Source: Eubacteriales bacterium (GTDB lineage Bacteria > Bacillota > Clostridia > Lachnospirales > Lachnospiraceae). Taken from it: DNA of 46,628 nt. A program made the translations under genes and the position numbers. Positions 7,804 to 25,834 of this stretch are shown piece by piece. Under the pieces are notes generated by a model. That model was given only the letters and a program-made list of their open reading frames with translations. It had not been told where the DNA came from and made no database searches. The stretch is taken from contig JAUNPS010000038.1 of assembly GCA_030536575.1 (NCBI GenBank), forward strand, positions 1 through 46,628. Reading direction: 5' to 3'. The stretch's first letter is position 1. The number at the start of each line of letters is the position of its first letter.

Positions 7804-8742
7804 TTATGCAAATGCTTTTACTTTTTCGTAGATGCCTTTCGCGTCCAGTCCGTATTTCTCAAGCAGGGCTGCTGCCGGGCCGGATTCGCCGAAGGTATCC
7901 TGGATACCGATCCGCAGAACCGGGGTCGGCGCTTTTTCGCTCAGGGTCTCGCAGACTGCGCTTCCCAGTCCGCCGATGACGGAATGCTCTTCCACCGTCA
8001 CAACTTTTCCGGTCTCTTTCGCGGCTGCTACGATCAGCTCCGTATCCAGCGGCTTGATGGTGTGAATGTTAATCACTTTGGCGGAAATGCCGTCTTTTTC
8101 CAGCATTTCGGCGGCTTCCAGAGAAGCGGCTACCGGAAGGCCGGAAGCGATGATGGTCAGGTCTTTTCCTTCTTTGAGGACAACGCCTTTTCCGATTTCA
8201 AATTTATAATCCGGGCGGTCGTTAATCACCGGAACGGCCAGACGACCGAAACGGAGGTAGACCGGGCCGACATATTCTACGGCGGCTTCTACGGCGGCTC
8301 TTGCTTCCACGTCGTCGGAAGGATTGATCACAACCATTCCCGGAATGGAGCGCATCAGGGCAATGTCTTCGTTGCACTGATGGGTCGCGCCGTCTTCTCC
8401 TACGGAGATGCCTGCGTGGGTCGCGCCGATTTTTACGTTCAGGTGCGGGTAGCCGATGGAGTTGCGGACCTGCTCGAAGGCACGGCCTGCCGCGAACATT
8501 GCGAAGGAGCTTACAAACGGAATCTTGCCCGTAGCCGCGAGGCCAGCGGCGATACCGGTCATGTTACATTCTGCGATACCGCAGTCAATGTGGCGCTCCG
8601 GGAAAGCCTTTTTGAATACGCCGGTTTTGGTGGCGGCGGCAAGGTCAGCGTCCAGAACAACCAGATTTTCGTGCTTTTTCCCCATTTCTACCAGGGCGTT
8701 TCCGTAACTGTCCCGTGTAGCGACTTTCTTTACTTCTGACAT
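7804..8742 (-). CDS. Transketolase, C-terminal subunit (general type)
   Basis: 312 residues. It carries the pyrimidine-binding and C-terminal domains of a split transketolase, which moves a ketol unit between sugar phosphates in the non-oxidative pentose phosphate pathway, with thiamine diphosphate. Features are NLVVLDADLAAATKT, HIDCGIAECNMTGIAAGLA (the Glu that activates the cofactor), IGATHAGISVGEDGATHQ, and a C-terminal VVTVEEHSVIGGLGSAV. The start ATG at 8742 overlaps the 3' end of the N-subunit gene by 13 bp, so the two are translationally coupled. The operon order is transaldolase, N-subunit, C-subunit. A second, more divergent pair lies at 12933-14685. Confidence 0.9.
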   Translation of the reverse strand: MSEVKKVATRDSYGNALVEMGKKHENLVVLDADLAAATKTGVFKKAFPERHIDCGIAECNMTGIAAGLAATGKIPFVSSFAMFAAGRAFEQVRNSIGYPHLNVKIGATHAGISVGEDGATHQCNEDIALMRSIPGMVVINPSDDVEARAAVEAAVEYVGPVYLRFGRLAVPVINDRPDYKFEIGKGVVLKEGKDLTIIASGLPVAASLEAAEMLEKDGISAKVINIHTIKPLDTELIVAAAKETGKVVTVEEHSVIGGLGSAVCETLSEKAPTPVLRIGIQDTFGESGPAAALLEKYGLDAKGIYEKVKAFA

Positions 8743-9584: not shown

Positions 9585-10238
9585 TTATTCGCCGAAGACT
9601 GCTTTGTAGTCTGCCTGGAATTTCGCGATGCCGGCGTCGGTCAGCGGATGTTTGGTCATCTGCTCGATTACCGCATAGGGTACGGTGGCAATGTCAGCGC
9701 CTGCCAGTGCGCAGTCGGTTACGTGGATCGGGTTCCGGACGCTGGCTGCGATGATCTCGGTTTCGATACCGGCTACCGCAAAGATGTCGGCGATCTCACG
9801 GATCAGGTCGGTTCCTCTTACGGAGATATCGTCCAGACGGCCCAGGAACGGAGATACGTAGGTAGCGCCTGCTCTGGCTGCCAGAAGAGCCTGGTTCGCG
9901 GAGAAAATGAGGGTTACGTTGGTCTTGATTCCTTCGGAGGACAGCACTTTGGTAGCTTTCAGGCCTTCGACGGTCATCGGGATCTTAACGACCATGTTCG
10001 GGTGGATTTTCGCAATTTCACGGCCTTCAGCGATCATGCCTTCCGCATCGGTGGTGGTCGCTTTTACTTCGCCGCTGATGGGGCCGTCTACGATGGAGGT
10101 GATCTCTTTAATAACTTCTACGAAGTCTCTGCCTTCTTTGGCAATCAGAGACGGATTGGTGGTCACGCCGCAGATCACGCCCATGTCATTGGCTTTGCGG
10201 ATATCTTCTACCTTGGCTGTGTCGATAAAAAATTTCAT
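9585..10238 (-). CDS. Transaldolase / fructose-6-phosphate aldolase-like protein (TalC family)
   Basis: 217 residues, matching the short transaldolase family (about 215-220). It would link sedoheptulose 7-phosphate and glyceraldehyde 3-phosphate to erythrose 4-phosphate and fructose 6-phosphate, or act as a fructose 6-phosphate aldolase; sequence alone does not decide. Features are MKFFIDTA at the start, [19 protein letters not shown] with the Schiff-base Lys, [28 protein letters not shown] and ASVRN. The start ATG follows AGGGAGG. It is the first gene of the operon with the general transketolase pair and has a strong promoter with a palindrome upstream, so control by a pentose-responsive repressor is likely. 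Confidence 0.88.
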
Positions 10239-10382: not shown

Positions 10383-10410
10383 CACAAAAGCAGCCTAGCC
10401 CCGGCTGCTT
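10383..10410 (-). terminator. Terminator of the isomerase-kinase-lacI operon
   Basis: AAGCAGCC (10388-10395) pairs with GGCTGCTT (10403-10410) around a 7-base loop, followed on the minus strand by TTTTGTG. The lacI stop codon (10397-10395) falls at the loop, so the 5' arm is coding. Confidence 0.8.
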
Positions 10411-11408
10411 TCGCTTAAGTCTTTCACGCTTCCCCGCTCCACGAACTGGGTGCAGATCTGGATCTTCAGGCGTGAATCCTCCCCCTGGATCAGCTCCCGC
10501 AGGCGGCGCACCGCCGCCTTCCCCATATCCCGTTTGGACACGCGCAGGGTCGTCAGTCCCGGAGAGGAGATCGAGGAAAAGGACAGGTCGTCGAAGCCGA
10601 TTAAGGACACGTCGTCCGGAATCCGGTAGCCCGCCTCGGTCAGGGCTTTCATCGCCCCCAGGGCAATCATGTCATCATCCGCAAAAAACGCGGTGGGAAG
10701 CTCCGGCTTTTTTTCCAGATACTCTTTCATTCCCTGATAAGCGCCGTCCATCGTCGTCGGAAGGGTCACGGTATATTTCTTTTCCGCGGCAAGCCCGGCC
10801 TTGTTCAGGGCGACCTGATAGCCTACGGCCCTGGAACGGAAGGCTTTGATCCGGAAATTTCCCCGGAGATAGCCGATGCGTTTGTGGCCTTTTCCGACCA
10901 GGTATTCGGTGGCCATCCGGGCGGAATCGGAATTGTTGATCAAAACGCCGTTAAAGCTCATATCCGCAGACCAGTTGTCCAGCAGAAGCAGCGGGCAGGC
11001 CGCGCCCCGGTAGATATCCAGGTCTTCCTCCATCAGCTCGGTTCCCAGAAGGATCACCGCCGAGGCCTTGTCGTTTAACAGCCAGCGAACCTGCTCTTCG
11101 TAGTTCTCATCCCGGCTGTCCAGGGTGCAGACCGTCATTTCCAGGCCGTTTTCCCGGCATTCCTGCTCCACGCCGTCGATCAGCAGCGGAAAGAAAGGCG
11201 TATCGTCCACGATCAGGCCGTTTTTCTTGTATTTCGCAAGTTTGACCTTGGTGATGCGGTTTTCTTCCAGGTAGCCCAGCTCCTGGGCCACCTGAAAGAT
11301 TTTTGCGGCCGTGTCTTTATTCACGCCTTTTTTGTAGTTCAGGGCATTGGACACGGTTGCTGGTGAGAATCCGGTTATTTCGCTGATTTTCTTTATGCTT
11401 ACCTTCAT
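10395..11408 (-). CDS. LacI family transcriptional regulator
   Basis: 337 residues. An N-terminal LacI helix-turn-helix (1-24: KKISEITGFSPATVSNALN) and hinge (about 45-60) precede a periplasmic-binding-protein-like sensor domain with GLIVDDTPFFPLLIDGVEQ, KGHKRIGYLRGNF, PTAFFADDDMIALGAM and VSLIGFDDLSFS. The start ATG follows GGAGGGG. It is the last gene of the isomerase-transketolase-kinase operon. The promoter of that operon is covered by a perfect LacI-type palindrome, so the simplest reading is that this protein represses its own operon until the pathway sugar, or a phosphate of it, is present. Confidence 0.9.
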   Translation of the reverse strand: MKVSIKKISEITGFSPATVSNALNYKKGVNKDTAAKIFQVAQELGYLEENRITKVKLAKYKKNGLIVDDTPFFPLLIDGVEQECRENGLEMTVCTLDSRDENYEEQVRWLLNDKASAVILLGTELMEEDLDIYRGAACPLLLLDNWSADMSFNGVLINNSDSARMATEYLVGKGHKRIGYLRGNFRIKAFRSRAVGYQVALNKAGLAAEKKYTVTLPTTMDGAYQGMKEYLEKKPELPTAFFADDDMIALGAMKALTEAGYRIPDDVSLIGFDDLSFSSISSPGLTTLRVSKRDMGKAAVRRLRELIQGEDSRLKIQICTQFVERGSVKDLSESSRG

Positions 11409-11450: not shown

Positions 11451-12932
11451 TTACGGGCGGGTCAAGACCATCCCGACTGCCTTTTTCCAGCCTTCATATT
11501 TCTCTTTCTTCACAGCTTCCGCCATCTGGGGCCGGAAGGCTTTCCGTTTCATCCGTCCAAACACATCCTGGCTGTAAATACCCATGGAAAGCCCTGCCGC
11601 GTAGGCCGCTCCGATGCCGGACAGCTCTTCCGCATCCGGGATCTGAACCGGGATTCCCAGCATATCGCTCTGGAACTGCATCAGGTAGCCGTTTCGGGTG
11701 GGGCCGCCGTCTACGCGCAGCTCGGCGATGGAAATGCCGGAAGCTTCGCTCATGGCTTTTACAATGTCCGTGATCTGATACGCAATGCAGTCCAGGGCCG
11801 CGCGAACCACTTCCGCCTGTCCGGTGGTTCTTGTGATGCCGCTGATGACGCCGGTCGCATTGCTGTCCCAATAGGGGGCCCCAAGGCCCGTAAAGGCCGG
11901 AACCAGATAGGTTTTATCCGCCGGATTCGCCGATTTCGCCAGGTCTTCCGTTTCTTTCGCGCCTGCGATCAGCTTCAGGTCGTCCTTCAGCCAGGTGATC
12001 ACCGCGCCGGTATAGTTAATGTTTCCTTCCAGTACGTAGTTGACTTTTCCGCTCATCGACCATGCCAGGGAAGTCACGACGCCCAGATCACTGAATACGG
12101 GCTTTTCGCCGATGTTCATCATAATGGAGGAACCCGTTCCGTAGGTGGTTTTGATCATGCCTTTTTCCAGGCATCCCTGTCCGAACAGCGCGCCGTGGGA
12201 ATCGCCCAATACGCCGCGGATCGGGATCGGTTTGTCCAGATAGCCGTCAAAATCCGTCTCGCCGAAATCGCCGTCGGAATCGGTCACCTTCGCCAGGCAG
12301 GCGGTGTTAATGCCGAACAGGCCGCAGATTTCCGCGTCCCAGGAAAGGGTACGGATGTTGAACATCTGGGTTCTGGAAGCGTTCGAATAGTCGGTGGCAA
12401 ACAGTTTGCCTTTCGTAAGACGGTACACCAGCCAACTGTCAATGGTTCCGCAGGCCAGCTTTCCGGCTTCGTTCTTCTCTTTGGCCCCTTCCACATTTTC
12501 CAGTACCCAGGCGATTTTCGCCGCGGAAAAATAGGGAGAGAGCTGAAGCCCGGTGCGCTCCTGAATCATGGGCGCATGGCCTTCTTTTTCAATGCGTTCG
12601 CAGATTTTCGCGCCGCGGGCACATTGCCACACAACGGCGTTGTAAACCGGTTTTCCGGTTTCCCGATCCCACACAAGGGCGGTTTCCCGCTGGTTGCTGA
12701 TACCAAGAACCGCAATTTCCGACTTGTCGATTCCGGCTTTTTCCACCAGGTTTTTCACCACCTGCACAGTATTGCGGTAAATTTCTTCCGGGTTATGCTC
12801 GACCCAGCCCAGTTCGTTGATGATCTGCTCGTGGGGCAGATCTGTCCGGCAGAGGAGGCTTCCCTCCTCGTCGAACAGAAGGGCTTTTGTGCCCTGGGTA
12901 CTCTGGTCGATTCCCAATACATAACGTGCCAT
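11451..12932 (-). CDS. FGGY carbohydrate kinase, glycerol-kinase-like
   Basis: 493 residues, full length for the FGGY family. It transfers phosphate from ATP to a polyol or ketose. MARYVLGIDQSTQGTKALLFDE starts the first actin-like domain. NQRETALVWDRETGKPVYNA and VVWQCAR match the glycerol kinase substrate loop. GVLGDSHGALFGQG carries the catalytic Asp, but the Gln that follows it in E. coli GlpK is Ser here. GGPTRNGYLMQFQSDMLGI and ELSGIGAAYAAGL belong to the C-terminal ATP domain. The start codon directly follows the TAA of the transketolase C-subunit gene, so the genes are coupled. Context with an isomerase and a specialised transketolase argues for a ketose kinase, for example apulose, rather than glycerol; that is inference. 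Confidence 0.85.
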   Translation of the reverse strand: MARYVLGIDQSTQGTKALLFDEEGSLLCRTDLPHEQIINELGWVEHNPEEIYRNTVQVVKNLVEKAGIDKSEIAVLGISNQRETALVWDRETGKPVYNAVVWQCARGAKICERIEKEGHAPMIQERTGLQLSPYFSAAKIAWVLENVEGAKEKNEAGKLACGTIDSWLVYRLTKGKLFATDYSNASRTQMFNIRTLSWDAEICGLFGINTACLAKVTDSDGDFGETDFDGYLDKPIPIRGVLGDSHGALFGQGCLEKGMIKTTYGTGSSIMMNIGEKPVFSDLGVVTSLAWSMSGKVNYVLEGNINYTGAVITWLKDDLKLIAGAKETEDLAKSANPADKTYLVPAFTGLGAPYWDSNATGVISGITRTTGQAEVVRAALDCIAYQITDIVKAMSEASGISIAELRVDGGPTRNGYLMQFQSDMLGIPVQIPDAEELSGIGAAYAAGLSMGIYSQDVFGRMKRKAFRPQMAEAVKKEKYEGWKKAVGMVLTRP

Positions 12933-13862
12933 TTATACCAACTCCATCGCTTTCTTTGCAATGCCTTCCGCATTCAGTCCGTAGTAATCAAATACTTCCT
13001 TGGAAGTTCCGGTGATGACCGGAGCGTCCGGCAGGGCCATTGTGATGACCTTCTTCGGGCATTCTCTGCCGACTACCTGGGCTACCATAGAGCCAAGGCC
13101 GCCGTAGGGCGCATGCTCTTCTACGGAAATGACGGCTTTCGCGTTCTGGGCCGCTTTTACAATCGCCGCTTCGTCCAGCGGTTTCACGCAGTACATATCC
13201 AGAACCGTGGCGCTGATGCCTTTTTCTTTCAGGATAGCGGCTGCCTCATAAGCAGGACGTACCATTTCGCCGCAGGCAATGATCGCAACGTCCGTGCCTT
13301 CGCACAGGACGGTCGCCTTATCCATTTCAAACGGGCAGTTTTCTTCCGTATAAATATCTTCTACCGGATTCCGTCCGACGCGGATGTAGGCCGGTTTTTC
13401 ATCCTGGAGCAATGCTTCGATCAGATGAGCGGTCTGGAAGCGGTCGCTGGGGAGGTAAACTCTCATGTTCGGCACAGAAGCCATTGCCGCAATATCCTGG
13501 GCAGAATGATGGCTCATTCCCAGTGCGCCGTAGCTGACGCCGCCGCTGATTCCGATCAGGGTTACGTTCGTGTTCGAGTAGGCTACGTCGATCTTCGCCT
13601 GCTCGTAGCTTCTGGTGGACAGGAAGCAGGCCGGGGATGCGGCGAAGGGTTTCTTTCCGCATTTTGCAAGGCCGGCGGAAATGCTGACCAGATCCTGTTC
13701 CGCAATGCCAACTTCTACGAACTGCTCCGGATATTCGTTGGCAAAGGGTGTCAGGGATGCGCTTCCTCTGGAATCACTGCAAAGGACTACAATATCTTTA
13801 TCTGTTTTTGCTTTCTCCATCAGCACATCGCAGATGGCCTGGCGATTCGGGATCTTATTCAT
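12933..13862 (-). CDS. Transketolase C-terminal subunit, specialised (AptB-like)
   Basis: 309 residues. It is the C-terminal half of a second split transketolase: IVVLCSDSRGSASLTPFAN, EVGIAEQDLVSISAGLAKCGKKPF with the cofactor-activating Glu, LIGISGGVSYGALGMSHHSAQDIA, and AVISVEEHAPYGGLGSMVA. The sequence clearly differs from the copy at 7804-8742. I chose the ATG at 13862, with AAAGGAGG 9 bases upstream; it overlaps the N-subunit stop by 8 bp. It lies between its partner and the FGGY kinase. In the D-apiose transketolase pathway a split enzyme of this size acts on apulose 4-phosphate; this assignment is inferred from gene content. Confidence 0.8.
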   Translation of the reverse strand: MNKIPNRQAICDVLMEKAKTDKDIVVLCSDSRGSASLTPFANEYPEQFVEVGIAEQDLVSISAGLAKCGKKPFAASPACFLSTRSYEQAKIDVAYSNTNVTLIGISGGVSYGALGMSHHSAQDIAAMASVPNMRVYLPSDRFQTAHLIEALLQDEKPAYIRVGRNPVEDIYTEENCPFEMDKATVLCEGTDVAIIACGEMVRPAYEAAAILKEKGISATVLDMYCVKPLDEAAIVKAAQNAKAVISVEEHAPYGGLGSMVAQVVGRECPKKVITMALPDAPVITGTSKEVFDYYGLNAEGIAKKAMELV

Positions 13863-14685
13863 GGAGAGCAGCCTCCTTTCTGGCTTCAAGGTCTTTCATA
13901 ATCTGATCGTATTCTTCCTGGGTCGGCACTTTGTGATGCCAGTTTGCTTTGTTCTCCATGACGCTGGAGCCGCAGCCTTTCGTGGTGTTCGCGATCACAA
14001 CGGTGGGTTTGCCCTTTAACTCTTTGGCTTCTTCGAAGGCGTCGTGAAGGGCGTCGATGTTATTTCCATCGGTGCTGATCACGTACCAGCCAAAGCTTTC
14101 GAAGCGCGCGGCCAGGTCGTCGTGATGCATCACGTCTTCGGTGCAGCCGGAAATCTGCAGGCGGTTCCGGTCTACAACGGCGCAGAGGTTGTCCAGTTTA
14201 TACTGGCTTGCCGCCATCGCGCCTTCCCATACGGAGCCTTCGGCCAGCTCGCCGTCGCCCATAACGGTGTATACGCGGTAATCCTGTTTGTTCATCTTGC
14301 CTGCCAGTGCCATTCCGACGCAGACCGGAAGGCCGTGGCCAAGGGAACCGGAGTTCATCTCAATGCCCGGAAGTTTGTTGTTCGGGTGGCCGATGAATTT
14401 GGAACCGAATTTCGAGAATTCTTTAATCACCTGCTCGATGGGGAAGAATCCTTTCGCAGCCAGAACTGCATACAGGGCTTCCACGGAATGGCCTTTACTC
14501 ATTACGAAACGATCCCGGTTCGGGTCGTCCATATTTTCCGGGCTGATATTCATCTGGTCGAAATACAGGGTAACCAGAATGTCCATAACGCTCATGTCAC
14601 CGCCGATATGACCGCCTTTGCCTTCCACGATCATATTGACCACGTCTTTTCTAAGGTCATAGGCCTTGGCTTTTAAATTTTCCAT
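13855..14685 (-). CDS. Transketolase N-terminal subunit, specialised (AptA-like)
   Basis: 276 residues. It has the thiamine-diphosphate half of a split transketolase: GKGGHIGGDMSVMD, DRFVMSKGHSVEALYA and GDGELAEGSVWEGAM, ending VVDRNRLQISG. The usual GHPGG is GHIGG and the usual NN of the cofactor motif is RN. Both changes fit a paralogue with another acceptor or donor than the housekeeping enzyme at 8730-9569. It starts 4 bases after the isomerase gene and overlaps its C-subunit. A split enzyme for apulose 4-phosphate is the favoured role; other four- or five-carbon ketose phosphates are possible. Confidence 0.8.
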   Translation of the reverse strand: MENLKAKAYDLRKDVVNMIVEGKGGHIGGDMSVMDILVTLYFDQMNISPENMDDPNRDRFVMSKGHSVEALYAVLAAKGFFPIEQVIKEFSKFGSKFIGHPNNKLPGIEMNSGSLGHGLPVCVGMALAGKMNKQDYRVYTVMGDGELAEGSVWEGAMAASQYKLDNLCAVVDRNRLQISGCTEDVMHHDDLAARFESFGWYVISTDGNNIDALHDAFEEAKELKGKPTVVIANTTKGCGSSVMENKANWHHKVPTQEEYDQIMKDLEARKEAALHE

Positions 14686-14689
14686 GTTC

Positions 14690-16090
14690 TCATTCTCCTC
14701 TTAAATATGCCTTTACGTCTTCTTCGATGGGATCATACAGATCCGGTTTTACGCCAATGTATTTGCATGCTTCGTAGAGTACCGGAACAACGTCTTTGTG
14801 GATGCCGACACAGTGGTGGATGTAGGGGCCTTCTACGATTTTGGCTTCCAGACGTTTGATGTTTTCCACTTCTACCCACAGATAGGTACCCATGCCTTTG
14901 GGGCCGTCCACGCCTTTGGCGTTTCCAAGAAGCATGGAGTATTCGCCGTTGTCACCGTCGAAGCGGCAGAGGGTTACGTTGCCGTGTTTGGCTTCCGCGG
15001 TGATGCTGCCCGGATGGTCGAAGGCCAGCGGATAGGTCAGCTTCGGGGTTTCTTTGGCTACGGAAATGGGCCACGGGCCGCAGTGCTGCAGCAGTTCGCC
15101 GTTGGGGATATCCGGATGGCGGATCGTCCAGTCTGCGAAGAAGCTTCTCGTTTCGCCCATGCCTGCGGCTTCTACGAGCAATGCGGTGATCGCGCCGTGG
15201 ATATCGGTTTCACAGACCACCGGAATGCCTTCTTCGTTCAGAAGGGAGTTGGCGGCGCAGGGCATGATGCCGAGTTCGGACTGGAGCTGGTTCCAGCACT
15301 GGATGGCAATGGCCTGACATCCGTATTTCGTGGCCAGACGTTTCATGGCGACTTTCAGTGCGGCTACGTTTTCCAGTTCGTTGTCTTTAATGCAGATTTC
15401 CATGTTCTTTCTGCAGTATTCCATGACTTCCGCTACTTCGGTGCCTTCTTCTTTGGCGGCTTTTACGACGTCGGTCAGTTCGGGCATCGGAATGGGGGAA
15501 AGCTGGATGTTGAATTTTTCAAGCAGTTCGCCTTCGTTGCACATGGTGGTCCAGAAGTCGAAGGGTCTGGTGGAGATCTGGAGGATGCGCATGTTGCGGA
15601 AGGTCTTTACGACGTTGCAGACAGCCAGGAAGTCCCGGATACCCCGTTCGAAGACCGGGTCGTTTAAGCGACAGTTGGTCATGTAGGTAAAGGGGATCTG
15701 GAAGCGGCGGAGCACTTTGCCGGTGGCGAAGAGGCCGCACTGGGTGTCACGGAGACGGACGCCGTTGGGTTCGGGACGTTCGTCCAGGGGGCCCCACAGG
15801 AGAACCGGCACGTTCAATTCTTTGGCCAGGCGGGCGCATTCGTATTCGGTTCCGAAGTTACAGTGAGGCAGGAACAGGCCGTCTACTTTTTCGGCTTTGA
15901 ATTTTTCGGCGATTTTTTTCATGTCGTCGTCGTTGTAGAGGAGGCCTTCTTCGTTGATGTCGGTGATGTCAACGAAGTCGATGCCGAGTTCGGTCAGGCG
16001 CTGGGCGGTGAGACCGCGGTATTTGATGGCGTCGGGGGCGCTGAAGATGCTGCGCCGGGTGGGGGCGTAGCCGAGTTTGATGTGTGCCAT
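14690..16090 (-). CDS. L-fucose/L-arabinose isomerase family protein
   Basis: 466 residues. It resembles the fucose/arabinose isomerase fold: an N-terminal nucleotide-binding-like domain (HIKLGYAPTRR, VDGLFLPHCNFGTEYECARLA, VLLWGP), a middle domain (ATKYGCQAIAIQCWNQLQSELGIMPCAANSLLNEEGIPVVCETDIHGA), and a C-terminal barrel-like region (GNVTLCRFDGDNGEY, GPYIHHCVGIHKD). The Glu-Thr-Asp and His-His-Cys segments are at places where this family binds metal. It would interconvert an aldose and a ketose. The start ATG follows AAGGAGG. It is first in the operon with specialised transketolase, FGGY kinase and LacI. D-apiose to apulose is a candidate reaction; L-arabinose or L-fucose are less likely given the missing partner enzymes. 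Confidence 0.75.
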   Translation of the reverse strand: MAHIKLGYAPTRRSIFSAPDAIKYRGLTAQRLTELGIDFVDITDINEEGLLYNDDDMKKIAEKFKAEKVDGLFLPHCNFGTEYECARLAKELNVPVLLWGPLDERPEPNGVRLRDTQCGLFATGKVLRRFQIPFTYMTNCRLNDPVFERGIRDFLAVCNVVKTFRNMRILQISTRPFDFWTTMCNEGELLEKFNIQLSPIPMPELTDVVKAAKEEGTEVAEVMEYCRKNMEICIKDNELENVAALKVAMKRLATKYGCQAIAIQCWNQLQSELGIMPCAANSLLNEEGIPVVCETDIHGAITALLVEAAGMGETRSFFADWTIRHPDIPNGELLQHCGPWPISVAKETPKLTYPLAFDHPGSITAEAKHGNVTLCRFDGDNGEYSMLLGNAKGVDGPKGMGTYLWVEVENIKRLEAKIVEGPYIHHCVGIHKDVVPVLYEACKYIGVKPDLYDPIEEDVKAYLRGE

Positions 16091-16144: not shown

Positions 16145-16172
16145 ATTATAAACGTTTATATGAAAATTTCAA
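16145..16172 (-). promoter_or_regulatory. Promoter of the isomerase-transketolase-kinase-lacI operon
   Basis: Minus strand: TTGAAA (16172-16167), a 16-base spacer and TATAAT (16150-16145), 55 bases upstream of the isomerase start. The operator 16147-16160 overlaps the spacer and the -10, so a bound repressor would exclude RNA polymerase. Confidence 0.75.
16147..16160. promoter_or_regulatory. LacI-type operator O1 over the promoter
   Basis: TATAAACGTTTATA is a perfect 14-bp palindrome with the central CG typical of LacI/GalR family sites. It overlaps the -10 of the isomerase operon, whose last gene encodes a LacI family protein. Confidence 0.7.
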
Positions 16173-16480
16173 TAGGTTTTTTGAAATTCGGGGATGGATG
16201 GGGAGTTTTTTTCTGTTTTTCACAATTTCTTGGGGTGTATTTTAGAGATTTCGCTGGGATATGTAAATGAATTATGTAAATATTTATATAAACGTTTTTG
16301 TAACTGGGTGGGATGCGCAGGCAGACTGCGCTCTGGAATCTCGATGTGGTTTCTGCACATGCCAGTCCGGCTTCCCTCATGGATCTGCTGCTCCCGGAAT
16401 GCTCGATGTTGTCTCGGCGCATACCCGCCCAGCGGCTCGCACGATACGAGCGCGCGTGGGTGAGTGATGCTTGCGTTCGG
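16161..16480. other. Intergenic region between GH31 gene and isomerase operon
   Basis: About 390 bases separate the two genes. The isomerase side is AT-rich and holds the promoter and two AAACGTTT sites. The GH31 side (16300-16480) is GC-richer with short open frames that show no ribosome site or family features. I see no gene and no convincing terminator for GH31 here. Confidence 0.5.
16287..16300. promoter_or_regulatory. Second LacI-type site O2
   Basis: TATAAACGTTTTTG contains the same AAACGTTT core (16290-16297) as O1. Its centre is 140 bp from that of O1, upstream with respect to the operon. The outer half is imperfect. Two sites could allow looping by a tetrameric or paired repressor; this is inference. 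Confidence 0.55.
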
Positions 16481-18859
16481 TTATGCCTGAAGGATTTCGC
16501 ATAATTCTCCGAAGACAGCCGGGTTTAAGTGCATCGCGGCCAGAGTGGCTACGGCGCTGGCGCCTTGCTTTTCGATTACGGACATGACGCGGCTTTTGAG
16601 GTTGTATTCAATCTGGGCTTTTTCCAGAAGCTTATAGCAGCGTGCGTTCAGGGTTTCGGCGGCAAGGCTAAGGCCGTTCGGGTAGGTTACGCGGATTTCT
16701 TTACCGACAGGTACATCGGTTATTGTCAGGATTTGAGCGGCGGTTTCTTTCTGGTAGGAGCAGGCGAATGCTGCTTCTGCGCCGTCTATGGTTACCTGGC
16801 AGGGGCTTTCTGTGATGCCAATAAACGCGAGTTTCCAGCTCCGGGTTTTGGGAAGGACGGATACATTTCCCTGGGCGGGGCTGATATGGAAACTGCTGGT
16901 TTCCTGGTTCCAGGCCAGTTCTGTAGCGGCCCAGTTTTCGTCGGCATCTGTCGGCGTGTCTCCCGCGTCTTCCCAGAGGGTGAATGCGCCATCCTCGGCC
17001 GGAAATATCCGCACTTCCATAGCCTGCGGATTCTCAATGCTGTTATCAAAGGTACTCATGTCTTTCATCGGAACGATCGCGCCCGCTTTCATGAGGACCG
17101 GAAGCTGCTCGACGCCGCGCCAGAGTTCCAGAAGGCGGTCGCCGTGGTAGATCATACCGGTGAAAAAGTCCGCCCAGAGTCCTTTCGGAAGCCAGGCTTG
17201 TGCTTTTCCGGCGCGTGCGATCCGATCCTGGGGTTCCGTGATCGGGGAAACGATCAGTTCCGAGCCGAAGTAGTATTCGTTTGGCACTTCGTAGGTTTCC
17301 GCCTGTTCCGGTTCCAGATAATACATTGGCAGGATCAGGGGGATATTTTCCCGGCTGGCTCTGCGGTTCATGGTGTACAGGTAGGGTACCAGGGCATGGC
17401 GCAGGCTTAAATATTCTTTCATCACGCTTTCGGTGATTTTGTCGTATTTCCAGGGTTCTTTCCCATTAAAAGGATTTTCGGAGCTGTGCAGGCGGTTAAT
17501 CGGGGAGAACACTCCAAGCTGTACCCAGCGGGCCATCAGCTCGTCGTCCCGCACGCCCATCATGTGGCCGCCAATGTCGTGGCTCCACCAGCCATAGCCG
17601 ACATTGCTCGCCGTACTGGTGAAATAAGGCTGGAACTGAAGGCTGTCCCAGGTTATGACCGTATCGCCGGAAAAGCCTACCGGGTAGCGGTGGCTTCCCA
17701 CGCCCGCATAACGGGAAAAGGTCATCGGCCTGGTTCCTTTCCAACGGCTGTCCAGGAAATGGTAATGGTTCAGCATCCATAAGGGGTCCAGTCCCGGAAT
17801 TTTCGTCGCGGTTCCCTGCTGCCAGTCCAGCCACCAGAAGTCTACGCCTTCTTCTTCCAATGGATGGTGCAGTTCCTTGAAATAGATTTCCATGAATTCC
17901 GGATTGGTGGCGTCGAACTGAACCGGGAGCCCGTCTTCCGGATTCATGCCCATGGCTTTCGCGACCCGCGGATACAGGTCTTCGTAGGCGCGCACGCCGT
18001 CGGCCGGATGGACGTTCAGGGTGATTTTCATGCCATGTTCATGGAGCCAGGCCATGAAGGCTTTCGGGTCCGGGAAGAATTTCCGGTTCCAGGTGTAGCC
18101 TGTCCAGCCGCTTCCGTATTTCGGGTCTACGTCGTCTACCAGATGCCAGTCCATATCCACAACGGCCACGGAGAACGGAACGTGCTCCGCTTCGAAGCGC
18201 TCGATCAGTTCTTTATATTCTGTCTCGGTGTAGCGGTGATAACGGCTCCACCAGTTTCCGAGGGCATAGCGGGGCAAAAGCGGCGTTTTCCCGCACAGGT
18301 AATAAAAATCGTTCAAGCAGTCCAGGTAGCGGTGGCCGTATCCGAAGAAATACAGATCCGCAATGCCCTGTTTCCTGGGCGCTACCCAGCCGTCGTCCGT
18401 CAATGCCATGGAGCGGCTGTCGTCCACAACAGAGAAACCGTTCCGGGAAATGAGGCCATGGCCCAATGGAATCGGCCCGTTGGCTTCGTCCAGGGTGCGG
18501 GCGGTGCCGCGAAGATCTCTGGGTTCTTCGCCGTAGTGCCAGGTGCCTTCGGAAGCGATTCCGCCGGATACTTTGATGCAGAGGCCGTTCGGCGCGAAGG
18601 GTTTTCGATTATAATGGAGCTCCAGGGCGTCGGTATAGACGGAGAGTTCTTCCGGCGTGTCGTCGACGCGGAAGGAGCATGGCGGAAAGTCGCGGTTCAG
18701 GACGCTTTGGGTGGCGCGGTCTTCGAAGACGCCGTCCTCGGCGTATTCCAGGCGGATCAGGGCCGGGGTTAGAATGGTGATGCGGTAGTGCTCGCCTTGC
18801 AGGACGGATTCCGGATGGCAGAGCGGGTGGGATTCCAGTTGGTAGTTTTCCATTCCCAT
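16481..18859 (-). CDS. GH31 family alpha-glucosidase
   Basis: 792 residues, no signal peptide, so cytoplasmic. GH31 features are the N-terminal beta domain, then the barrel with SVAVVDMDWH (about 230-239), SGWTGYTWNRKFFPDP, ITLNVHPADGVRAYED, the nucleophile in VDFWWLDWQQGT (Asp about 345) and the acid/base Asp in VGFSGDTVITWDS (about 399). These segments resemble the isomaltose-preferring alpha-glucosidase described from Ruminococcus (Blautia) obeum. I do not see the residues I would expect for a sulfoquinovosidase. I chose the ATG at 18859 with AGGAGGAG 10 bases upstream; a frame start at 18934 lies inside the promoter. It lies upstream of the isomerase operon on the same strand but has its own promoter. 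Confidence 0.85.
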   Translation of the reverse strand: MGMENYQLESHPLCHPESVLQGEHYRITILTPALIRLEYAEDGVFEDRATQSVLNRDFPPCSFRVDDTPEELSVYTDALELHYNRKPFAPNGLCIKVSGGIASEGTWHYGEEPRDLRGTARTLDEANGPIPLGHGLISRNGFSVVDDSRSMALTDDGWVAPRKQGIADLYFFGYGHRYLDCLNDFYYLCGKTPLLPRYALGNWWSRYHRYTETEYKELIERFEAEHVPFSVAVVDMDWHLVDDVDPKYGSGWTGYTWNRKFFPDPKAFMAWLHEHGMKITLNVHPADGVRAYEDLYPRVAKAMGMNPEDGLPVQFDATNPEFMEIYFKELHHPLEEEGVDFWWLDWQQGTATKIPGLDPLWMLNHYHFLDSRWKGTRPMTFSRYAGVGSHRYPVGFSGDTVITWDSLQFQPYFTSTASNVGYGWWSHDIGGHMMGVRDDELMARWVQLGVFSPINRLHSSENPFNGKEPWKYDKITESVMKEYLSLRHALVPYLYTMNRRASRENIPLILPMYYLEPEQAETYEVPNEYYFGSELIVSPITEPQDRIARAGKAQAWLPKGLWADFFTGMIYHGDRLLELWRGVEQLPVLMKAGAIVPMKDMSTFDNSIENPQAMEVRIFPAEDGAFTLWEDAGDTPTDADENWAATELAWNQETSSFHISPAQGNVSVLPKTRSWKLAFIGITESPCQVTIDGAEAAFACSYQKETAAQILTITDVPVGKEIRVTYPNGLSLAAETLNARCYKLLEKAQIEYNLKSRVMSVIEKQGASAVATLAAMHLNPAVFGELCEILQA

Positions 18860-18904
18860 AGTTTGATGTCTCCTCCTGTATGGTTCTGTTTTTTCGTAAT
18901 GATT

Positions 18905-18934
18905 ATCATAGCACACTTGGCCGGTTTGTTTCAA
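18905..18934 (-). promoter_or_regulatory. Promoter of the GH31 gene
   Basis: Minus strand: TTGAAA (18934-18929), an 18-base spacer and TATGAT (18910-18905), about 45 bases upstream of the chosen start. No AAACGTTT operator is present, so control should differ from that of the isomerase operon. Confidence 0.6.
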
Positions 18935-24145: not shown

Positions 24146-25834
24146 TTACTGAAGAGAATCGCGCGTCGTCATCGCATTTTCCAGGTCCGCAAGTCTCCAT
24201 TCAATGATCTCCTGCGCTCCCAGTCCTTCACAATCCGCAACCATCTGATCCCAAATCGCTTCAAACTCGGCTTCATCTTCCGCATAAACCATCTTCCAGC
24301 TTGCATTCACCACTTTATCCTTAATCGCATCAATGGTAAGCTGCATCATATCATCCGGCAGAGAAGTGAATGTAAAGACATCATCCAAGACGCTTTCCGA
24401 CGTATAAGCATTTTCACTCTCAAGCCATTCTTTCCAGTTTGTGAACCCGGTGGTTTCCTGCCACTGACGGAACACTTCATTATCCGTACTGATCTCATTC
24501 ACCTCCTGCCATCCAATGGTCGAAGCCGAACGGTAATTGCCCTCACCGTCTTTATAGCTGCACAGCACGCCATTTTGAATGATAAACGGCGTATTCCAGA
24601 TTTCCAGTGTCTCTCCGGTCGAAAGCGCAAAACCGGTATAATCGCCGTGGCCGCTGTTTAACCATTCCAGCGCCGCATCCGTAAAGTAAGCATTTTCGCC
24701 ATCCGCATACCAGTATTCTCCTTCCGGGCCGGAATTGATGATCAGATACGCATCCGGATCGGCCAGCATATCCAGGTAAGCCAGGCAGGCATCCAGGTTT
24801 TCCGTCTTCGCGCTGATCCCGATCATATAACGGGTATCGCCGTAGGTCGAACTGTAGTTATAATAAACCTGATTTCCAGGAATCAAATATTCCAGATAAG
24901 TCGGAGCCCAGCCAGGAAGATATCCGGAGGGAACCTGTGCATAGCCGCCGTCCACTTTTACTTTCTGGGTCGGACGGTCGTTGTTGATGGAATCCGGATC
25001 CATCAGGCCCCGGCTGTTGACTTCGTTGTACCATTTCAGACCCTGGTAGTACATGCTGTCCCGGCTCAGGATGGAGGTATACGTTCCCTCAACCATATTG
25101 GTCTCCAGCAGGTACGGAAGCTGATTTTCCAGGTATCCCTGCATCCGATACCACATCGTCATACAGCTCCAATAGGTGGAATCCGAGCCATTGTTCAGAA
25201 CCGTTCCATAACAGGGGGTTCCGTCTTCCTCTGTCGGATGCGCTTCCTGCATCTGCTCCATAACGTCAATCAGGTCATCCATACTGTTGATTTCCGGCGC
25301 GCCGATTTCCTCGTACACATCCCAGCGCAGACGAACCGCATTCCGCTCCGTGGAATCTACCCATTTATAACGGGCATAGTTGTCACCGATACTGGTCGGA
25401 ATCCCGTAAACGCTTCCGGTTCCCGCGCTCTTGAACTCGCGCACATAATTCAGCGCCGGTTCCACTTCCTCGAATGCCTGGAGGTGAGGCATATCATCCA
25501 GATATTCATCCAGATTCAAAAGCATTCCGTTCTGAATCATAATATCCAGGCTCTGCTCCGGAATAAACATCACATCCGGCAGGTCGCCGCTGGCCAGAAT
25601 CGCGTTGGTCTTTTCATCGGAATAAGACCATACGTCCAGATTAAACCCGCGGGAAGCGAAATATTCCCCCTTGAAGCCTCCTACGACACCGCTGGATACA
25701 TTGGCGTCACGGGGATAAAAGGTAATGGTCGGCACGTTCCCGGAGGCGTTCTCCTGTTCCGCGCATACGGCCATCGGCAAGGTCATTGCGCCTGCCAGAC
25801 TACAGGCAATTACACGTTTCCACATTTTTTTCAT
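24146..25834 (-). CDS. Extracellular solute-binding protein of sugar ABC transporter 1
   Basis: 562 residues, in the long LplA/family-1 class that works with LplB/LplC-type permeases. It binds an oligosaccharide outside the membrane. The signal peptide has KKMWKR then CSLAGAMTLPMAVCAEQ. The Cys near residue 24 is preceded by AV rather than a good lipobox, so lipid anchoring is uncertain and signal peptidase I cleavage is possible. The mature part has ILASGDLPDVMFI and GMLLNLDEYLDDMPHL, as in such proteins. The start ATG follows GAGAGG. It is last in the order permease, permease, binding protein, next to a YesM/YesN pair and divergent from rhamnogalacturonan enzymes, so a pectin fragment is the likely ligand (inference). 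Confidence 0.85.
   Translation of the reverse strand: MKKMWKRVIACSLAGAMTLPMAVCAEQENASGNVPTITFYPRDANVSSGVVGGFKGEYFASRGFNLDVWSYSDEKTNAILASGDLPDVMFIPEQSLDIMIQNGMLLNLDEYLDDMPHLQAFEEVEPALNYVREFKSAGTGSVYGIPTSIGDNYARYKWVDSTERNAVRLRWDVYEEIGAPEINSMDDLIDVMEQMQEAHPTEEDGTPCYGTVLNNGSDSTYWSCMTMWYRMQGYLENQLPYLLETNMVEGTYTSILSRDSMYYQGLKWYNEVNSRGLMDPDSINNDRPTQKVKVDGGYAQVPSGYLPGWAPTYLEYLIPGNQVYYNYSSTYGDTRYMIGISAKTENLDACLAYLDMLADPDAYLIINSGPEGEYWYADGENAYFTDAALEWLNSGHGDYTGFALSTGETLEIWNTPFIIQNGVLCSYKDGEGNYRSASTIGWQEVNEISTDNEVFRQWQETTGFTNWKEWLESENAYTSESVLDDVFTFTSLPDDMMQLTIDAIKDKVVNASWKMVYAEDEAEFEAIWDQMVADCEGLGAQEIIEWRLADLENAMTTRDSLQ

What the first reader, a model, noticed from the sequence alone, without database searches (positions are those of the whole stretch)
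11451..16090. Candidate pathway for an unusual ketose, best guess D-apiose
One operon holds a fucose/arabinose-isomerase-like enzyme, a second split transketolase, an FGGY kinase and a LacI repressor. Isomerase, kinase, then transketolase is the logic of the described D-apiose transketolase route (apiose to apulose to apulose 4-phosphate, then transketolase AptA/AptB). Apiose occurs in the RG-II part of pectin, and the same window encodes rhamnogalacturonan breakdown. No transporter gene lies in the operon, so the sugar may be released inside the cell. A different substrate would make this a new pathway.
Basis: inference. Interest (0 to 1): 0.7.

Follow-up and report, generated by a model that had tools for sequence, protein, structure and literature searches.

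The report
Gut-bacterial operon for the sugar apiose
A four-gene operon in a gut bacterium most probably breaks down D-apiose, a rare branched sugar of plant cell walls, by the known isomerase-kinase-transketolase route; it is a new relative of a described pathway, hidden under names such as glycerol kinase.

Summary
In detail: window 16090-11451 (minus strand) holds a fucose/arabinose-isomerase-family protein, a split transketolase and a glycerol-kinase-type FGGY kinase; a LacI gene follows just outside the span. The apiose reading survives the tests run. (1) The transketolase groups with enterobacterial AptA/AptB and rhizobial relatives, apart from pentose-phosphate and sulfoquinovose-locus enzymes (99/95). 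(2) The kinase lies outside the GlpK group and shares with apiose-cluster kinases the replacement of two glycerol-pocket residues. (3) Of 21 relatives with the isomerase, 8 have beside it a transporter 40-55% identical to the E. coli apiose one; 12 of the other 13, and none of the 8, carry apiosidase-family genes. (4) A beta-glucoside PTS and an apiosidase lie beside the operon in Listeria and three other loci; a rhamnosidase follows it in three relatives. (5) The host genome shows no orthologue of that transporter's binding protein but has two strong apiosidase matches without an evident signal peptide, which fits intracellular release. Weak points: the isomerase is not orthologous to enterobacterial ApsI (27%), its 58-62% paralogues lie in other clusters, and nothing was assayed. 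New member of a known pathway; modest interest.

The parts
14690..16090 (-). L-fucose/L-arabinose-isomerase-family protein, proposed D-apiose -> apulose isomerase
   Evidence: E294 and H426 in 45 of 45 rows and D320 in 43 of 45, a plausible metal site (mapping to FucI recalled); next to TK2 and kinase in relatives
13855..14685 (-). transketolase N-terminal (ThDP-binding) subunit, AptA-like
   Evidence: Pfam Transketolase_N; joint tree with AptA/B 99/95
12933..13862 (-). transketolase C-terminal subunit, AptB-like; ATG start overlaps the previous gene by 8 bases
   Evidence: Pfam Transket_pyr and Transketolase_C; Y, L, H shared with AptB where 19 of 19 pentose-phosphate rows have V, D, Q
11451..12932 (-). 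FGGY kinase of the glycerol-kinase type, proposed apulose kinase
   Evidence: 43-46% to four GlpKs from plasmid records, 37-40% to apiose-cluster kinases; pocket replacements shared with the latter
10395..11408 (-). LacI-family regulator, probable repressor of the operon
   Evidence: Pfam LacI and Peripla_BP; relatives beside the operon in many other loci
16152..16167 (+). palindromic LacI-type operator candidate, in the promoter spacer (one base into the first hexamer)
   Evidence: one of 2 matches in the window, 0.09 expected, 2 of 100 shuffles reach 2; the pattern was chosen from upstream regions that included this one
16280..16295 (+). second operator candidate
16145..16172 (-). sigma-70-type promoter, TTGAAA-16-TATAAT, 11 of 12
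9585..10238 (-). FSA/TalC-type gene, may take the product into central metabolism (inferred)
   Evidence: TIGR00875 309.8 bits, cut-off 245.95; same order in L081
8730..9569 (-). first transketolase, N subunit (ordinary pentose-phosphate type)
   Evidence: groups with the family's usual transketolases
7804..8742 (-). first transketolase, C subunit (ordinary pentose-phosphate type)
   Evidence: H and D kept

Best explanation
The operon is a D-apiose catabolic operon of the AptA/AptB transketolase type. Apiose, freed in the cytoplasm by the host's apiosidase-family hydrolases (in some relatives taken up free by an ABC transporter), is isomerised to the branched ketose apulose by the fucose-isomerase-like enzyme, phosphorylated by the glycerol-kinase-like enzyme to apulose 4-phosphate, and cleaved by the special transketolase, which moves a two-carbon unit to glyceraldehyde 3-phosphate and gives dihydroxyacetone phosphate and xylulose 5-phosphate (reaction recalled from the described route). 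Xylulose 5-phosphate is used through the pentose phosphate pathway, whose transketolase and an FSA/TalC gene follow downstream. The LacI protein probably represses from an operator inside the promoter. Shown: gene content, conservation, family placement, residue changes, genomic associations. Inferred: every substrate and reaction, cytoplasmic release and repression.
For: Conserved gene set. Transketolase with AptA/B 99/95 and shared Y/L/H residues. Kinase outside the GlpK group; GlpK-invariant Q and F replaced by S in 27 of 27 operon and 6 of 6 cluster kinases. Host has another, higher-scoring GlpK (753 bits). Rahnella, Klebsiella and Sodalis clusters place a fucose-isomerase-family gene between aptB and the kinase. 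In 8 of 21 relatives an ABC transporter of the E. coli apiose type lies beside the operon: SBP 40-46%, ATPase 46-49%, permease 50-55% where the contig reaches; DUF2291 protein confirmed in one; nearest solved chains to its SBP 5ibq and 4ry0, about 1e-108. Strong Pfam Apiosidase matches in 9 of 21 isomerase-carrying vs 1 of 128 other genomes, p 3.5e-8. PTS + apiosidase directly after the operon in Listeria and L101, directly before it in L112, before its LacI genes in L096. Rhamnosidase after the kinase in L048, with homologues there in L050 and L052; RG-II contains Rha-Api (PMC7939467 passages). Own C84 apiosidase: best solved match 8t9w 'Apiosidase' 3.7e-70. E. coli strains that carry the apt cluster grew on apiose, K-12 did not (PMC13001218 passages).
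Against: No assay. The isomerase is 26-28% identical to the enterobacterial ApsI candidates and lies in another subfamily; its nearest paralogues, 58-62% identical (L056, L057), lie in clusters without this transketolase pair, as do L058 (52%) and four 48-56% relatives elsewhere in the phylum. The kinase is nearer in identity to GlpK than to the cluster kinases, the join of the three groups is unresolved (86/43), and Listeria's kinase (38% to the window's) sits on a very long branch. Enterobacterial AptB rows have lost arginines that this enzyme and the ordinary ones keep. 27 of the 80 nearest named loci, the very nearest (L081) among them, show neither transporter nor apiosidase in the flanks. 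6 of those 80 lack the transketolase pair, and L152 has the isomerase alone; of 5 genomes searched, 4 had a 51-70% copy elsewhere, one only 38%. The host's apiosidases lie on other contigs.
Confidence: 0.86

Rival explanations
1. Same sugar, different order: the transketolase cleaves unphosphorylated apulose to dihydroxyacetone and xylulose 5-phosphate, and the glycerol-kinase-like enzyme phosphorylates dihydroxyacetone afterwards.
For: The kinase is nearest to GlpK, and glycerol kinases can act on dihydroxyacetone (recalled); the sulfo-TK route shows a transketolase working on an unphosphorylated ketose (PMC11659671 passages); the transketolase has lost the histidine that orients the donor.
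Against: The kinase shares altered pocket residues with the apiose-cluster kinases, described as acting on apulose (recalled); the loss of the histidine is shared with AptB.
Confidence: 0.08
2. Sulfoquinovose breakdown by the sulfo-transketolase route (isomerase of the SQ-isomerase superfamily plus split transketolase).
For: The only NCBIfam match of the isomerase is SQ isomerase SftI (110 bits); split transketolase.
Against: Far below the cut-off of 700; own genome has no SftI match at 1e-60; the isomerase lies outside the SQ-isomerase group; the transketolase is not with the one SQ-locus transketolase tested and lacks its D at the diagnostic place; no gene of the operon matched a sulfosugar isomerase other than weakly, or a reductase, and a kinase is not in the route as PMC11659671 describes it.
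Confidence: 0.01
3. Another aldose (a common pentose or hexose, or a tetrose) handled by isomerase, kinase and a transketolase with relaxed specificity.
For: The isomerase superfamily is broad, and 37-62% paralogues lie in clusters of other make-up; the nearest solved SBP is named 'probable ribose' binding protein.
Against: Apiosidase association and its complementarity with the transporter, and the AptAB placement.
Confidence: 0.05

Closest known systems
D-apiose transketolase pathway (ApsI, apulose kinase, AptA/AptB; Carter et al. 2018, not held, recalled; E. coli/Pectobacterium version in PMC13001218, passages seen)
   Same: Gene set isomerase + split transketolase + GlpK-type FGGY kinase; transketolase clade; kinase pocket residues; ABC transporter type in relatives
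   Different: Isomerase of another subfamily of the fucose-isomerase superfamily; LacI regulator where the enterobacterial records name a 'sugar-binding transcriptional regulator'; no transporter beside the operon here, apiosidases elsewhere in the genome; order isomerase-TK-TK-kinase
Sulfo-transketolase pathway (SqvD, SqwGH, SqwI, SqwF; PMC11659671, passages seen)
   Same: Superfamily of the isomerase; split transketolase after an isomerase
   Different: Other transketolase group, no SqwI/SqwF match in the operon, kinase present
Glycerol kinase GlpK
   Same: Closest general family of the kinase; passes the NCBIfam cut-off by 8 bits
   Different: Outside the GlpK group in the tree; two GlpK-invariant residues (glycerol contacts by recall) replaced by S; another, higher-scoring GlpK is present in the genome
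Rhizobial clusters (L203 annotated, L204 not) with apt-like transketolase and kinase
   Same: Same transketolase group, kinase type and transporter type
   Different: In L203 an AP_endonuc_2 TIM-barrel gene stands where the isomerase would be: the first step seems to have been recruited more than once

Membership tests
D-apiose AptA/AptB pathway | Split transketolase of the AptA/AptB clade | tested here: met
   99/95 in the joint tree of both subunits, with enterobacterial and rhizobial cluster members; shared residues
D-apiose AptA/AptB pathway | Apulose kinase of the FGGY family | tested here: inconclusive
   Shares pocket changes with 6 of 6 cluster kinases but does not form a supported clade with them
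D-apiose AptA/AptB pathway | D-apiose isomerase orthologous to ApsI | tested here: not met
   Same superfamily, 26-28% identity, different subfamily. Orthology seems not to be required: E. coli lacks apsI and still grows (SDRs proposed, PMC13001218), rhizobial L203 has a TIM-barrel gene
D-apiose AptA/AptB pathway | Supply of apiose (transporter or apiosidase) | tested here: met
   Own genome: 4 Pfam Apiosidase matches, 2 strong; no orthologue of the transporter's binding protein; relatives have one or the other
D-apiose AptA/AptB pathway | Conversion of apiose, apulose and apulose 4-phosphate | not testable with these tools
   needs enzyme assays
Sulfo-TK pathway | SQ isomerase above the curated cut-off | tested here: not met
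   110 bits against 700. The cut-off is a weak yardstick: 0 of 150 family genomes pass it
Sulfo-TK pathway | Transketolase with D in place of the donor-orienting H | tested here: not met
   S in 17 of 17; D in the one SQ-locus enzyme compared; motif from PMC11659671
Glycerol kinase GlpK | Curated family score | tested here: met
   598.7 against 590.35
Glycerol kinase GlpK | GlpK-invariant pocket residues and GlpK clade | tested here: not met
   Q and F replaced by S; GlpK group of 8 rows, 100/99, excludes it; that these are pocket residues is recalled

The most novel reading that the evidence does not exclude
The operon defines a widespread, so far mis-annotated apiose pathway of gut Bacillota with an independently recruited isomerase subfamily and two largely exclusive supply modes (free-sugar ABC import, or import of apiosides with intracellular apiosidase), in which the glycerol-kinase-like enzyme acts after the transketolase, on dihydroxyacetone, instead of on apulose.
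Probability: 0.08. Interest if true: 0.55.

Novelty: new member of a known kind. Interest (0 to 1): 0.36.

Why it matters
Genes that public records call L-fucose/L-arabinose isomerase family protein, transketolase and glycerol kinase can be re-read as an apiose pathway in many gut Lachnospiraceae, in Anaerovibrio, Monoglobus pectinilyticus and Listeria. That would make use of RG-II apiose and of apiosylated plant glycosides predictable from genomes, and gives a division between free-apiose importers and apioside hydrolysers that can be tested. It also suggests that the isomerase step was solved by several unrelated or distant proteins.

Tried and rejected
Rejected: sulfo-TK route and ordinary glycerol metabolism (see rivals and membership). 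GH31 at 18934-16481 as a sulfoquinovosidase: NCBIfam gives alpha-xylosidase and alpha-glucosidase matches below their cut-offs; it has no match beside the isomerase in the nearest relative L081, so I do not count it as part of the operon.

Led nowhere or incomplete: two structure predictions (isomerase; an SBP of a relative) were unfinished at the last polls, so no fold evidence is used. A profile of 25 close isomerases found no solved chain up to E = 1. Carter et al. 2018 is not held; what I say of it is recalled or taken from passages of PMC13001218. No held paper has a word beginning 'apulose'. The apiosidase/GH140 search listed 25 of 47 papers; of these I saw passages of PMC7939467 only. 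Passages of PMC6302742 concern other apiose routes. Other literature searches showed, in the rows listed, nothing on this operon beyond PMC13001218.

Limits and dropped rows: the transporter was scored only in the stretch fetched around the operon, the apiosidases over whole genomes, so 'either-or' is not a whole-genome statement for both. Three of the 12 apiosidase-positive relatives (G026, G084, G148) have only weak matches (1e-13 to 1e-17). Lachnospiraceae GlpK rows were wrongly cut for 3 of 7 loci; I required two GlpK-typical words in the ORF and only 4 of 10 loci gave a row; the own GlpK (L215) is not in that tree. The 80 named loci are the best of 497, not a random sample, and at least three (L123, L149, L156) repeat genomes of the family set. 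The operator consensus was chosen by looking at the same upstream regions, so the enrichment is partly circular: P1 in 11 of 41 loci with the window-type LacI and 0 of 36 with the other type, P2 in 15 of 36 and 0 of 41; 5 and 4 of 22 loci without a LacI in reach; 30 of 41 window-type loci, among them all 8 family-set loci, had no P1 match. Three duplicate loci were left out there.
Full report
What is there. On the minus strand lie, in order, an isomerase-family gene (16090-14690), two transketolase subunit genes (14685-13855, 13862-12933), an FGGY kinase gene (12932-11451), a LacI gene (11408-10395), an FSA/TalC gene (10238-9585) and a second transketolase pair (9569-8730, 8742-7804). The first four are separated by 4, -8 and 0 bases. 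A promoter match of 11 of 12 ends 54 bases before the isomerase start codon, and a LacI-type palindrome lies in its spacer, one base into the first hexamer. The window holds two such palindromes at up to 3 mismatches (0.09 expected; 2 of 100 shuffles reach two), both in front of this operon; the pattern had been read off upstream regions that included this one.

Conservation. Of 149 other genomes of the family, 21 have an isomerase of 70% identity or more; in the stretches fetched around it, 20 of 21 carry both transketolase genes and the kinase, 17 of 21 in the same unbroken order; the exception is G084, which has the isomerase alone. Of the best 80 of 497 loci in named genomes, 62 show all four; of the other 18, 8 have the transketolase pair but no kinase in the flank, 3 are cut by contig ends, 6 lack the pair (one of them also the kinase) and one (L152) has the isomerase alone. 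In 5 of the 6 pair-lacking genomes a search for the C subunit found a 51-70% copy elsewhere in 4 and only 38% in one. The set also occurs in Monoglobus pectinilyticus and Listeria. In a sample of 398 genomes of the phylum, 9 others match at 1e-140: the three at 83-86% have all four genes, so do two of one genus at 54-55%, and four at 49-56% do not in the fetched stretch (one, L305, at a contig end). Paralogues of 58-62% in G038 and G085 lie in other clusters, so identity alone does not fix the isomerase's role.

Transketolase. In a tree of 57 rows (both subunits), window TK2 and 16 relatives, 4 enterobacterial AptA/B pairs and 2 rhizobial pairs form one side of a branch (99/95), against 20 pentose-phosphate rows, the pair beside one SQ-isomerase gene (entered twice) and 12 others. 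The program warns of long branches, including the join of the enterobacterial and rhizobial rows; the grouping with TK2 is the point used here. In the active-site region 19 of 19 distinct pentose-phosphate rows have H, V, D, Q at four places; TK2 has S, Y, L, H (17, 17, 17, 16 of 17), enterobacterial AptB N, Y, L, H (4 of 4), rhizobial S, Y, L, H (2 of 2), the SQ-locus enzyme D, A, N, M; among 11 other rows one (L282) also has Y, L and H. PMC11659671 (passages) reports the H-to-D change in SF transketolase and links the altered motif to specificity. By recalled numbering the lost D is TktA D469, which contacts the acceptor's hydroxyl; its loss suits a reaction whose product is a ketone (DHAP). 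That last sentence is inference. Against: the enterobacterial AptB rows have also lost arginines that TK2 and the rhizobial rows keep.

Kinase. TIGR01311 calls it glycerol kinase by 8 bits, but the own genome has another at 753 bits. In the tree 8 GlpKs form one group (100/99), 6 cluster kinases another (100/99), and the operon kinases a third: 26 rows at 100/97, 27 with Listeria's long branch at 86/43; how the groups join is not resolved. In identity the window kinase is nearer to GlpK (43-46%) than to the cluster kinases (37-40%). Of 15 positions invariant in the 8 GlpKs and lost in both other groups, 7 carry the same residue in at least 26 of 27 operon kinases and 6 of 6 cluster kinases; two of them (Q to S, F to S) are, by recall, glycerol contacts of GlpK.

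Isomerase. It belongs to the superfamily of L-fucose isomerase, SQ isomerase and the genes that sit between aptB and the kinase in Rahnella, Klebsiella and Sodalis clusters. It is not orthologous to those: they join other 24-28% paralogues in the tree. Conserved E294 and H426 (45 of 45) and D320 (43 of 45) fit a metal site (mapping recalled). In E. coli apsI is missing and two oxidoreductases are proposed instead (PMC13001218); in Rhizobium L203 a TIM-barrel gene stands there. So the first step appears to vary.

Sugar supply. Eight of the 21 relatives have, by the operon, an ABC transporter with SBP 40-46%, ATPase 46-49% and permease 50-55% identical to the E. coli apiose transporter, where the contig reaches; its small extra protein is DUF2291 in L036. 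The L036 SBP's best solved matches are 5ibq and 4ry0 (that 5ibq is an apiose complex is recalled, not shown). Pfam Apiosidase (PF13204) occurs in 20 of the 149 other genomes: 12 of 21 with the isomerase, 8 of 128 without (p 1.4e-7); at E < 1e-60 in 9 of 21 and 1 of 128 (p 3.5e-8). None of the 8 transporter genomes has one, against 12 of the other 13 (p 4.4e-5); the thirteenth, G075, has a gene 34% identical to Monoglobus' apiosidase-like protein beside its kinase. These tests ignore shared ancestry, and the transporter was scored beside the operon only. Among the 80 named loci, 42 have the transporter, 3 a PTS plus apiosidase, 9 a gene of the DUF5060/apiosidase-like kind; one (Hespellia, L096) has both transporter and apiosidase, so the split is not absolute, and 27 have none in the flanks. 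In Listeria the order is LacI (opposite strand), isomerase, transketolases, kinase, beta-glucoside PTS, apiosidase (313 bits). In three relatives, each with a strong apiosidase match elsewhere in the genome, a rhamnosidase gene (Pfam in L048; 35 and 56% homologues in L050, L052) follows the kinase; RG-II contains Rha-alpha1,3-Api-beta1,2-GalA, cut by an alpha-rhamnosidase and the beta-apiosidase BT1012 (PMC7939467). The host's own genome (90.7% complete) has no orthologue of the binding protein (best 28%) and has apiosidase genes at C84 and C59 (about 311 bits each; best solved match of the first 8t9w 'Apiosidase'), without an evident signal peptide by eye.

Verdict. It is a new member of a described kind of pathway. 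What is new to me is the reach among gut Bacillota, the distinct isomerase subfamily and the two supply modes; PMC13001218 says that gut Clostridia had already been shown to degrade apiose by Carter et al., which I could not read, so priority cannot be judged.

Noticed in passing
L239 (own genome C84:1-16000): An apiosidase gene lies among two dehydrogenase-like (Gfo/Idh/MocA type by eye), a sugar-epimerase-like (by eye), a GH3 (Pfam) and a transporter-like gene (by eye): perhaps an apioside cluster with redox chemistry.
   Followed up: partly
own genome C34:24866-26311: A further GlpK-type gene with one in-frame TAA.
   Followed up: no
L302 and L303: Two genomes of one genus outside the family: one has the free-sugar ABC transporter after the four genes, the other three unannotated genes (446, 290, 291 aa) and an apiosidase-like gene.
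   Followed up: partly
L096, L083, L098, L106, L128, L157: Loci with the isomerase but without the transketolase pair (kinase next to it in five); a 51-70% copy of the C subunit lies elsewhere in 4 of 5 genomes searched.
   Followed up: yes
L070 (G088): An ApsI-type (27%) isomerase lies next to a weak Pfam Apiosidase match (G088:C1:895883-896692) and an FGGY kinase: possibly another apiose cluster type.
   Followed up: no
window 16481-18934: GH31 gene 390 bases before the operon; substrate unclear, no match beside the isomerase in the nearest relative.
   Followed up: partly
window 24146-25834: 562-aa protein without a Pfam match at 1e-5 beside two ABC permease genes and a two-component system.
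   Followed up: no
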